Origin: Aneurinibacillus uraniidurans
Lineage (GTDB): Bacteria; Bacillota; Bacilli; Aneurinibacillales; Aneurinibacillaceae
Length of the DNA stretch: 64,000 nt
NCBI RefSeq assembly: GCF_028471905.1
Contig: NZ_CP116902.1
Coordinates: 594,501-658,500, forward strand
Reading direction: 5' to 3'
Both the position numbers and the translations under genes were made by a program. Below the pieces are notes generated by a model. That model saw only the letters and a program-made list of their open reading frames with translations. It was not told where the DNA came from and did not search any database. Shown here one piece after another: positions 12,199-63,728 of the stretch; position 1 is the stretch's first letter; each line of letters starts with the position of its first letter.

Positions 12199-12215
12199 GT
12201 ACATGTGTGTGCATC

Positions 12216-12318
12216 CTTATCTTTCAGAACCGTTGTTCTGCGGGAGTTGGCACCTTACTGTTCATGCAGCAGGTTGCCGGGTGTCATCGGGCCCGTCCCT
12301 CGACCATCTCGTGATAAG
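12216..12318 (-). ncRNA. SAM-I (S-box) riboswitch aptamer upstream of mtnK
   Basis: Read on the minus strand: P1 CTTATCAC pairs with GATAAG; the core has GAGGGACGGGCCCGATGA, then CCCGGCAACC, and AAGGTGCCAACTCC, all signature S-box elements, including the kink-turn and SAM-contacting bases. It is followed by a terminator. SAM binding should favour termination and shut off mtnK. Confidence 0.96.
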
Positions 12319-12386
12319 TCAATCCAAATGTAACAGTCGTACGAATTATTTGTCAAGAGTGAAAATACGCGAGAGTGAAAAAAGTG

Positions 12387-12827: not shown

Positions 12828-12936
12828 CTCTCATCGAGAGAAGGCGGAGGGACTGGCCCGATGATGCCCGGCAACCTGCCTGTGTTCGCACAGGCAAGGT
12901 GCTAATTCCTGCAGGAGTAATCCTGGGAGATGAGAG
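12828..12936 (+). ncRNA. SAM-I (S-box) riboswitch aptamer upstream of the ABC operon
   Basis: CTCTCATC pairs with GATGAGAG as P1. The core carries GGAGGGACTGGCCCGATGA, CCCGGCAACC and AAGGTGCTAATTCC, and a CCTGTG/CACAGG stem. A terminator follows at 12960. Together with the mtnK riboswitch this places two divergent operons under SAM control. Confidence 0.97.
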
Positions 12937-51464: not shown

Positions 51465-51616
51465 AAGAACATCCCCTTCCTCCATAAAAATAATAAATCT
51501 ACAAAGAAGATGGTTGGGTGCACTATTGACTCTTATTCATCCAAGTGCCCATATTACAGATGAATATTCATTGTCTCCACTTTTTTGTTATACTAATGAT
51601 ATAGTTCATTATTACT

Positions 51617-59999: not shown

Positions 60000-60656
60000 A
60001 TGAACATGTTGCTAAAGAATGTGAAGGCGTCGCTCTCATACTTACTCATTGCCCTTGCCTGTACGCTGCTTGGTACGTATATGTTACTGAATCAGCCGGA
60101 GAACGTGAAGACACAATCGATGCAGGAAATTCCAGCAAAACCAGTCGTACAGCACCCAAAACAGGCACAGGTAAAAACGGATAAGCCAATCGTTCGGGAA
60201 CGTTTCCCGCTTGCGACGAAAGGTGAAACCGTGGAGACGCTTTCGCTGTTGCGTCATTATCCAAAACGGAATGTACTAGCCACCGGCTATTCACCTGGTC
60301 CGGAATCAACCGGCAAAACAGTCGGGCATCCGGCATATGGGATTACGTATTCTGGAGTTAAAGCAAGGCGGGACCGAGCGTCTATTTCGACGATTGCAGC
60401 GGATTTGTCCGTTTTTCCACTTGGAACGATCTTGTACGTTCCAGGCTACGGGTATGGCATTGTAGCGGATAAAGGCTCCGCGATTAAAGGGCATAAGATT
60501 GATCTGTATTTTGACAGCAAGGAACAGGTCTATAAGGAATGGGGCAAGAAGCGGACCGATGTGTATGTAATCGAAAAAGGGAAAGGCAAAGTGACCGAAG
60601 AAGTCATGTCGGAGCTTAATCGCAGTGCTGCTCCTGTATCATCTGAGAAAAAGTAA
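60000..60656 (+). CDS. yuiC: YuiC, 3D-domain (Sps-type) muralytic protein
   Basis: A 218-residue protein with an N-terminal membrane anchor or signal (residues 12-30, [20 protein letters not shown]) and a C-terminal 3D domain of about 110 residues. The 3D fold is a small beta-barrel with three aspartates related to lytic transglycosylases; here [20 protein letters not shown] leads in, and Asp residues are in IAADLS, IVADKG and IDLYFDS. YuiC of B. subtilis is a lytic transglycosylase-like spore-related protein. ATG 60000 is eleven bases after GAGGAGG, which itself lies in a hairpin. Confidence 0.88.
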
Positions 60657-60665
60657 GCAAAATCG

Positions 60666-60713
60666 AGGCTGTCTCAAAAGCTAGAACATGGCGGATGGGA
60701 TAGCCTTTTTTGT
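60666..60713 (+). terminator. Terminator of yuiC, GAGGCTG family
   Basis: GGCTGTCTC pairs (two wobble pairs) with GGGATAGCC, followed by TTTTTTG. The left part GAGGCTGTCTCAAAAGCT is an inverted copy of sequence at 61371-61391. Confidence 0.75.
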
Positions 60714-60965
60714 GATATCGACAACGTTTGGTGGGGAGGGAGTGGAAGAAGGGAGGAGCCGTTCGCTTGGTTACGCTTGCAGGGAAGTGTCGACTGTCCG
60801 CTCCGGAAGAACGACGAACGTGCCCGCAAAGAAAAGCCCGTGATGTTGATTCAGCGAAGGATTGCGGACAAAGGCTCGTTCGCCGTTCTCCCTTCGCTGT
60901 GCAATCGCGTAAAAATGCTCTCTTGCTCCTCCCTTCTCCCACTCCCCGCACAACGTTTCGATCTA
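60714..60965 (+). repeat. Long palindromic element D, possible structured RNA
   Basis: A GC-rich non-coding stretch of 252 bases that folds on itself end to end. The outer left arm (ATATCGACAACGTTTGGTGG on) pairs with the outer right arm ending ACAACGTTTCGATCTAC. Inner pairs include ACGACGAAC with GTTCGCCGT and TGCCCGCAA (60821-60829) with TTGCGGACA (60862-60870). It is homologous over at least 140 bases to the minus strand of element E. Element C shares the left arm and element B the right arm. Confidence 0.8.
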
Positions 60966-61087
60966 CAAAAAAACTCTCAGCGCCAGAATGGACTTGTTCG
61001 GTAGCCGCTGGCTTTTCACAAGACTACTTCCTTATTTTTTACCTGCATAGCAAGGCTTGAGCTCTTGATCTTGCTTGATGATTTTTA

Positions 61088-61322
61088 TCCAAAGTATGCT
61101 AGGAGCGGGATCGGGCGGGGCAGCGGAACGCCTGTACGCGCCTGCTTAGCGGAAGGGGGCAGGCGAACGATTTTTGTCCACAACGCTTCGGTGTATATAC
61201 ATCGTAGGCTTTTTTTGTGGGCAAGTTCGTCTGGCACCTGGAGCGGACAGTTATAACCTCTCCGTAAGCGTACCGAAGTGACGAGGCCCCGCCCGATCCC
61301 GGCTCCTCCACCGTACTTTGGA
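61088..61322 (-). repeat. Long palindromic element E, inverted homologue of D
   Basis: Another non-coding palindrome of about 235 bases. The outer arms CCAAAGTATGCT...GGAGCGGGATCGGGCGGGGC pair with GCCCCGCCCGATCCCGGCTCC-type sequence ending GTACTTTGG. On the minus strand it contains CTGTCCGCTCC, CAGACGAAC, TGCCCACAA, TTGTGGACA and GTTCGCCTG in the same order and spacing as D, with base-paired substitutions. The purine/pyrimidine-rich outer arms differ from D. Confidence 0.8.
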
Positions 61323-61336
61323 GAAAACCGCCCCCC

Positions 61337-61391
61337 AAGAAAAGAAAGAGGCTGCCTCAGTCGCTGTGTTAGAGCTTTTGAGACAACCTCA
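61337..61391 (-). terminator. Terminator of yuiD, GAGGCTG family
   Basis: On the minus strand GAGGTTGTCTC pairs with GAGGCAGCCTC, followed by TTTCTTTTCTT. It shares GTTGTCTCAAAAGCT-type sequence with the yuiC terminator in inverted orientation. Confidence 0.7.
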
Positions 61392-61403: not shown

Positions 61404-61886
61404 CTATACAGTCCATAACGGATACAGTACATACGATTGAATAATCCCAAGACCTGCTCCTATAATGACTTCACCAGGCTGATGTCCAAGAAGTTCCTTT
61501 AGCTTGCGAGCCCGTTCTGCTCGAGGTTTGATCCGCAAGGCTTTCACTTCTTCAAGCAGAACATTAAAGTCTTCTATTAACGTGTTAAGAACGGCTGCAT
61601 GTGTGCCAGCATGTCGGCGCACGCCTGCGGCATCAAACATAATAATGATGGCAAAAACCGTAGAGATTGCAAAATACGTAGAATTAAAGCCTTCTACAAG
61701 TCCTACCGCTGTAGTCAGGGCGGTAACAGCGGCTGAGTGGGAACTCGGCATGCCTCCGGTGCTAAATACGAGCCGCCAGTCCCACCGTTTTGTGGATAAA
61801 TACGTAATCGGGACTTTCACAACTTGAGCAAGCACGATCGCTAGAAGGGCAGAGCAGAGTGGGAAATTACTAAACCATGTTGACAT
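61404..61886 (-). CDS. yuiD: YuiD family divergent PAP2/DUF212 membrane protein
   Basis: A 160-residue protein with about four hydrophobic segments. Family marks are FSTGGMPSSHSAAVTALTTA (GGMPSSHSA is the acid-phosphatase-like motif of DUF212) and FDAAGVRRHAGTHAAVLN, which correspond to the PAP2 core. It ends with LLGHQPGEVIIGAGLGI. Members may dephosphorylate lipids; B. subtilis YuiD is not characterised to my knowledge. ATG 61886 is eight bases after AAAGGA; ATG 61892 is closer. The yuiC-yuiD-yuiE order is that of B. subtilis, with elements D and E inserted between. Confidence 0.9.
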   Translation of the reverse strand: MSTWFSNFPLCSALLAIVLAQVVKVPITYLSTKRWDWRLVFSTGGMPSSHSAAVTALTTAVGLVEGFNSTYFAISTVFAIIIMFDAAGVRRHAGTHAAVLNTLIEDFNVLLEEVKALRIKPRAERARKLKELLGHQPGEVIIGAGLGIIQSYVLYPLWTV

Positions 61887-61981
61887 GCACATCTTCCTTT
61901 CTGCAAAGGACTCTCTCTATTGTATACTATATAGAGGAATAACTTCAAAATCTGCATGTATTTTTTTCGGAGGTGGCAAAT

Positions 61982-63556: not shown

Positions 63557-63606
63557 TGTGGAGATTCGTTATAATGACAACATCAATAAACGAAAAATAA
63601 ATACGA

Positions 63607-63676
63607 ACTCGTATAATCGCGGGGATAAGGCCCGCAAGTTTCTACCAGACTACCGTTAAATAGTCTGACTACGAGT
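63607..63676 (+). ncRNA. Guanine (purine) riboswitch upstream of xpt
   Basis: P1 ACTCGTA (63607-63613) pairs with TACGAGT (63670-63676). The core has the purine aptamer sequences TATAATCGCGGGGATAAGG, CGCAAGTTTCTACC, and the P3 hairpin. The junction after P3 reads TGACTACGAG; the C at the ligand-pairing position marks guanine/hypoxanthine specificity and not adenine. A TATAAT at 63570-63575 is the likely promoter -10. Confidence 0.95.
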
Positions 63677-63728
63677 GAGATCATCGGAATAGTTGTTCGC
63701 TTTTGGCGGCACATCTATGGAGAGCAAG

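What the first reader, a model, noticed from the sequence alone, without database searches (positions are those of the whole stretch)
60714..61322. Two inverted homologous palindromic elements with co-varying base pairs
Element D (plus strand) and element E (minus strand) align almost without gaps over about 140 bases although they are clearly diverged. Positions that pair in one also pair in the other, and some pairs change together: TGCCCGCAA/TTGCGGACA in D becomes TGCCCACAA/TTGTGGACA in E (G-C to A-T), and ACG/CGT in D becomes CAG/CTG in E. Conserved single-stranded-looking blocks also exist (CTGTCCGCTCC, GGACAAA, CGAAG). This pattern fits a structured RNA or a maintained palindromic mobile repeat. 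I know no Rfam family that matches. No protein is encoded inside.
Basis: partly seen in the sequence, partly recalled or inferred. Interest (0 to 1): 0.75.

Follow-up and report, generated by a model that had tools for sequence, protein, structure and literature searches.

The report
Mobile repeat carrying paired structured RNAs
The two palindromes are the two halves of one 726-base mobile repeat, and their folded core belongs to an apparently undescribed family of hairpins scattered through many spore-forming bacteria, often as back-to-back pairs; what it does is unknown.

Summary
D and E are diverged inverted homologues with real compensatory changes, but they are the two arms of one composite repeat (60665-61390), not two independent elements. 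The own genome has 21 near-full copies plus deletion derivatives; a sister genome has about 40. All six congeners searched lack it at this site.

The ends are hairpins that fold best on the inward strand and are followed by T-runs, like intrinsic terminators. A congener's IS1182-family element has the same 16-bp terminus.

One-sided base-pair changes are mostly G·U on one strand (D minus, E plus). So D and E look like RNAs (or, less likely, ssDNA hairpins) facing outward from a central spacer.

A covariance model from D and E finds the fold in 48 of 398 Bacilli genomes (20 of 145 genera), with strong covariation. Close neighbours in Brevibacillus are mostly divergent pairs (16 of 21, none convergent). 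In other genomes the core lies between different, ISL3-like ends. Rfam 15 has no credible match, and eight paper searches found no description.

Not shown: transcription, partner protein, function. Best reading: a structured-RNA module spread by MITEs with unrelated transposon ends; here it inserts at, or replaces, gene-end terminators.

The parts
60665..61390 (.). whole composite repeat, bounded by 46-nt terminal inverted repeats (76% complementary)
   Evidence: interval lacking in six congeners
60665..60711 (+). left terminal hairpin with T-run; inward-facing intrinsic-terminator-like
   Evidence: folds -22.6 kcal/mol inward against -10.6 outward; 21-copy comparison
60707..60975 (-). arm D: long hairpin, conserved on the minus strand (model core 60758-60925)
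   Evidence: 169.5 bits
60976..61079 (.). central spacer between the arms; presumed origin of outward transcripts (no promoter found)
   Evidence: partly conserved in 21 copies; no sigma-70-type site
61080..61330 (+). arm E: long hairpin, conserved on the plus strand (model core 61121-61286)
   Evidence: 173.7 bits
61335..61390 (-). right terminal hairpin with T-rich tail; inward-facing intrinsic-terminator-like
60000..60656 (+). upstream neighbour ORF, stop codon 9 bases before the element (product not tested)
61404..61892 (-). convergent neighbour ORF, ends 14 bases after the element (product not tested)

Best explanation
D and E are two copies of one conserved structured-RNA domain: a long hairpin with an asymmetric internal loop, CAGCGGA on the 5' side and GGAGCGGACAG on the 3' side. 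They sit head to head in a 726-bp non-autonomous transposon (MITE). Shown by sequence: one repeated composite, present here and absent from the same site in congeners; strand-biased pairing; the same fold in many genera; terminator-like ends; IS1182-type ends here and different ends around the same core elsewhere. Inferred: (1) an IS1182-family transposase moved it in trans (only two fragments of that family remain here); (2) it inserts into, or replaces, the terminator at a gene's 3' end and its inward hairpins take over termination; (3) D and E are transcribed outward from the central spacer and act as RNAs, probably by binding a protein encoded elsewhere, either as cargo useful to the host or as a part that helps the element spread.
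For: Repeat and mobility; at eight further loci G005 shares the full element at four, has a truncated copy at one, is empty with a terminator hairpin at two, one unresolved. Ends: of 42 hairpins, 30 fold at -10 kcal/mol or better, and 25 of those 30 fold better inward; same 16 bases at one end of an IS1182-family element in G006, two mismatches at its other end. Strand: D G.U 59 / A.C 24, E 51 / 24 among pairs >=80% Watson-Crick; other genomes 45 / 19. Family: 48 of 398 Bacilli genomes. Covariation 0.650 against 0.202 shuffled and at most 0.211 slid on 46 sequences. Pairs: 16 divergent, 5 tandem, 0 convergent. Second vehicle.
Against: No transcript data; no sigma-70-type promoter in the element. 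Outward, the window's end hairpins fold weakly, so outward RNAs would lack a clear terminator in this copy. No target duplication recognised. Strand signals are moderate: without a threshold G.U/A.C is 138/103 (D) and 130/75 (E); single-copy folding prefers the named strand in 19 of 29 and 21 of 28 copies only; on the diverse alignment the strands are nearly equal in energy, -55.0 against -52.8; six own rows there give 7 G.U to 11 A.C, where their alignment is poor. The 'empty' sites L017 and L031 could be losses in G005. Members in Melghirimyces are single and 6 of 18 lie between divergent genes, so gene-end placement is not a family rule.
Confidence: 0.5

Rival explanations
1. The fold works as single-stranded DNA: a strand-specific hairpin in each arm, recognised by a recombinase or replication protein when the element is single-stranded, as attC sites or IS200/IS605 ends are (recalled examples).
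For: G.T is also the better tolerated mismatch in DNA, so the bias does not exclude it. The inverted arrangement puts a functional-strand hairpin towards the 3' side of each strand. No promoter was found.
Against: The ends look like those of IS1182-family elements with inverted repeats, which do not need such hairpins (recalled). The same core occurs between different ends. Many copies in other genera are single.
Confidence: 0.2
2. The element matters only as a portable terminator; D and E are large stems that came along.
For: Ends fold as inward terminators. All 48 determined elements here adjoin at least one gene 3' end. In Aneurinibacillus tyrosinisolvens the outer stem is followed by a U-run and 8 of 10 determined copies have the upstream gene on the same strand. 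SPRITE repeats are a published parallel (PMC3049150, passages).
Against: It does not explain why D/E keep internal-loop sequences and covary across genera, nor why they are conserved on the outward strand, behind the inward terminators.
Confidence: 0.13
3. Neutral quasi-palindrome correction (template switching between arms) produces the paired changes; there is no selected structure.
For: The arms are long imperfect palindromes and deletion derivatives show hairpin instability.
Against: Correction does not choose a strand, yet one-sided changes are biased in paired and balanced in unpaired columns (248:166 against 73:84, p=0.005; D alone p=0.01, E alone p=0.18). Internal-loop sequences stay while stems are rewritten across genera.
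Confidence: 0.07
4. A cis-regulatory RNA (riboswitch-like leader) of neighbouring genes.
For: In Melghirimyces 14 of 18 determined copies have the downstream gene on the same strand.
Against: Here no element lies between divergent genes and 21 lie between convergent ones; downstream ORFs in Melghirimyces look unrelated by eye, without a family search; arms are divergent pairs.
Confidence: 0.04

Closest known systems
Bacterial MITEs and structured interspersed repeats (BOX, RUP, SPRITE of pneumococcus; PMC3049150, passages read)
   Same: non-autonomous, dispersed, folded, over-represented between convergent genes; SPRITE is terminator-like
   Different: longer (726 bp), two homologous arms head to head, strand-biased covariation, core found in many genera and between different ends
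bcr repeats of the Bacillus cereus group (PMC6542083, passages read)
   Same: 100-400 bp repeats, tens of copies, some predicted to fold
   Different: described there as restricted to the B. cereus group and tied to a TTTAT motif; no such motif or restriction was found here (bcr sequences themselves not compared)
IS1182-family insertion sequences
   Same: 16-bp terminus identical at one end of a congener's element, hairpin ends
   Different: no transposase inside; own genome holds only two fragments of the family
RNAs of mobile systems (omega RNA, bridge/seek RNA; recalled, one seekRNA paper seen only in a search listing)
   Same: structured non-coding RNA carried by a mobile element
   Different: no recurrent protein gene beside the copies examined; no Rfam match; a lead only

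Membership tests
MITE | terminal inverted repeats | tested here: met
   60665-60710 / 61345-61390, 46 nt, 76% complementary
MITE | many dispersed copies without transposase | tested here: met
   47 loci fetched, 21 near full; no long ORF assigned inside
MITE | occupied and empty sites | tested here: met
   six congeners lack it at the window site
MITE | target-site duplication | tested here: inconclusive
   flanks of several copies are palindromic, no clear direct repeat
MITE | a related autonomous IS with matching ends | tested here: inconclusive
   matching ends in congener G006; none intact in the own genome
known Rfam family | match at or above gathering score | tested here: not met
   none in the region, none at E<=5; 11 loci from other genomes gave only a sub-threshold plant miRNA hit over the L136 copy, on both strands (38.5 against 180 bits), taken as chance
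intrinsic terminator (end hairpins) | G+C-rich stem followed by T-run, on the read-in strand | tested here: met
   the simple terminator scan did not list them, perhaps because of its loop limit of 8
intrinsic terminator (end hairpins) | terminates transcription | not testable with these tools
   no expression data
structured non-coding RNA | compensatory changes beyond controls | tested here: met
   shuffles ignore relatedness, slides keep it
structured non-coding RNA | is transcribed | not testable with these tools
   no RNA-seq; promoter scan negative
cis-regulatory RNA | same strand upstream of functionally related genes | tested here: not met
   own genome; Melghirimyces downstream ORFs look unrelated by eye only

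The most novel reading that the evidence does not exclude
An undescribed, widespread family of bacterial non-coding RNA in Bacilli is a module that has been captured by at least two unrelated kinds of transposon ends and kept, often as head-to-head pairs, because the RNA works with a common protein encoded elsewhere, as a guide-like or regulatory RNA of a mobile system or as cargo useful to the host.
Probability: 0.35. Interest if true: 0.85.

Novelty: new variant of a known kind. Interest (0 to 1): 0.62.

Why it matters
If transcribed, this is a structured RNA family, with tens of copies in some genomes, in common spore-formers such as Brevibacillus, that Rfam 15 does not cover. One fold between two unrelated kinds of transposon ends, often head to head, suggests that the hairpin itself is what is kept. 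That makes a concrete question testable: what does a MITE-borne structured RNA do, and which protein reads it? The inward terminator-like ends also suggest how an element can settle in gene-end terminators at little cost.

Tried and rejected
Rejected: known Rfam RNA. Rejected for the D sequence: a plasmid- or phage-borne repeat (no match in those collections). Not found: a shared neighbour gene (787 ORFs near 63 loci, largest recurring groups 2-3 loci). Considered and dropped: end hairpins as target duplications, because left and right hairpins are end-specific rather than locus-specific (by eye). A pseudoknot between an apical CTGTC and GGACAG fits some genera but not D/E, so it is not claimed. 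The promoter scan gave nothing. Folding energy on the diverse alignment did not separate strands. Papers: searches listed no description of this repeat; one search found 30 papers holding one of three short strings, and the 10 listed are unrelated by title. I read passages of PMC10969869, PMC3049150, PMC6542083 and PMC2267715; the rest I saw only as listings.

Full report
WHAT IS THERE. Searches of the own genome show that they are parts of one unit. It runs 60665-61390, between 46-nt terminal inverted repeats that begin GAGGCTGTCTCAAAAGC on the left and GAGGTTGTCTCAAAAGC on the right. I fetched 47 loci: 21 near-full copies went into one alignment, and the others are shorter or deletion derivatives. 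Three of these (L021, L049, L052) join 60729 to 60950, between direct repeats that flank the D palindrome.

MOBILITY. In the sister genome G005 the window's flanks match up to 60662 and again from 61394 with only 21 bases between them, inside a hairpin that looks like a bidirectional terminator. In the five other congeners, 140-188 bases separate the matched flanks where the window has 817-844. The simplest reading is insertion in this lineage. At eight further loci G005 has the full element at four (L010, L013, L018, L025), a truncated copy at one (L019), a terminator-like hairpin and no element at two (L017, L031), and one is unresolved (L033). These last two could be losses. Joined flanks of several copies are palindromic, as if the element sat inside a stem-loop (by eye). 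I recognised no target duplication.

ENDS. Of 42 end hairpins in the 21 copies, 30 fold at -10 kcal/mol or better on either strand. Of these 30, 25 fold better on the strand read from outside inwards (means -22.2 and -16.6, Wilcoxon p=1.6e-5), followed by T-rich stretches. Isolated hairpins of the same sequence occur too, for example in L066, L070 and L071. An IS1182-family element in G006 has the same 16 bases at one end, two mismatches at the other, and hairpin ends. The own genome shows only two fragments of that family. Around 50 own elements the neighbouring genes are convergent in 21, co-directional in 27, divergent in 0 and undetermined in 2 cases; among 60 gene pairs of the window the counts are 13, 33 and 14 (Fisher p=2e-4).

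WHICH STRAND FOLDS. Consensus energies favour D-minus (-89.5 against -39.6) and E-plus (-84.5 against -59.8), though the two alignments of each arm differ slightly in extent and rows. A count that needs no energy model used pairs from a consensus folded without G.U, kept if at least 80% Watson-Crick. D gives G.U 59 to A.C 24 and E 51 to 24 (sign tests over pairs, p=0.0015 and 0.0005; relatedness makes these optimistic). Without the threshold the ratios are 138:103 and 130:75. In unpaired columns the same kinds of change are balanced (73:84 against 248:166 in paired ones, p=0.005 combined; D alone 0.01, E alone 0.18). Rows from other genomes give 45 to 19, and the six own rows in that alignment 7 to 11. 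Single copies fold better on the named strand in 19 of 29 and 21 of 28 cases, and the diverse alignment does not separate the strands by energy. So the structure is probably kept on the outward strand of each arm. Neutral palindrome correction would not choose a strand; single-stranded DNA could.

A FAMILY. The joint D+E alignment A5 (50 sequences) has double changes at 17 of 33 pairs and 98.2% standard pairs. Model R1 from it matches at E<=0.001 in 8 of 41 genomes and in 48 of 398 Bacilli genomes, 20 of 145 genera, own genome included (strict filters). At E<=0.1 five further genomes hold 5 to 40 copies each. Of the 80 loci it gave, 65 are Bacilli (Aneurinibacillus, Brevibacillus, Melghirimyces, Kroppenstedtia), and 55 of these hold 81 R1 hits; the 15 from unrelated taxa hold none. 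Ten Bacilli loci fit the pattern but not R1, so R1 misses members or the pattern has chance hits. Across 46 chosen sequences the stems are rewritten, with up to six standard pair types at a position, while CAGCGGA and GGAGCGGACAG stay in most. Covariation is 0.650 against 0.202 in shuffles and at most 0.211 with slid partners.

ARRANGEMENT. Among the loci from named genomes, neighbouring hits less than 700 bases apart are divergent in 16, tandem in 5 and convergent in 0 cases. All 16 are in Brevibacillus, so they are not independent of each other. One divergent pair lies in A. tyrosinisolvens (L108) and one in G035 (L122). Many copies, including those seen in Melghirimyces, are single, and there 6 of 18 determined copies lie between divergent genes. 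No protein family recurs widely beside the copies. In G006 and G008 the core lies between other inverted ends, such as GGCTCAATATCAAAGAATGTGCTTGAC. Near an ISL3-family transposase in G003 the sequence GGCTCAACACCAAAAAATATGCTTGAC agrees with that end at 23 of 27 bases; this is one place among the ten ISL3 loci examined, two of which are the same place, and only one end was found. One fold thus seems to ride in two unrelated vehicles.

MECHANISM. Committed reading: a MITE with IS1182-type ends inserts at gene-end terminators and its inward hairpins replace what was there, while it carries two outward-facing structured RNAs. The insertion and the end structure rest on comparisons above. Transcription, partner and benefit are inferred. 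No promoter was recognised, and outward the window's end hairpins fold weakly.

KNOWN OR NEW. No credible Rfam 15 match, no match of the D sequence in the plasmid and phage collections, and no description in eight paper searches of open-access PMC. It works like other folded bacterial repeats, some enriched between convergent genes (PMC3049150, passages). It differs in its breadth, strand bias, head-to-head arms and shared core.

Noticed in passing
window 12214-12320 (-), 12828-12936 (+), 51503-51586 (-), 63589-63691 (+): Two SAM riboswitches, a c-di-GMP-II riboswitch and a purine riboswitch above Rfam gathering scores.
   Followed up: no
L066, L068, L070, L071 and similar loci: Isolated 39-45-bp hairpins with the same GAGGCTGTCTC arms as the element's ends, apparently stand-alone terminators or remnants.
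   Followed up: partly
L038, L039, L041, L042: A diverged, perhaps older subfamily of the D arm in the own genome with different outer stems.
   Followed up: partly
G000:C1:2380480-2381115 (L078, L083): Two fragments of an IS1182-family transposase, the only matches to that family in the own genome.
   Followed up: no
L061, L065, L067: Left-end hairpins followed by strongly shortened D arms: internal deletion derivatives.
   Followed up: no
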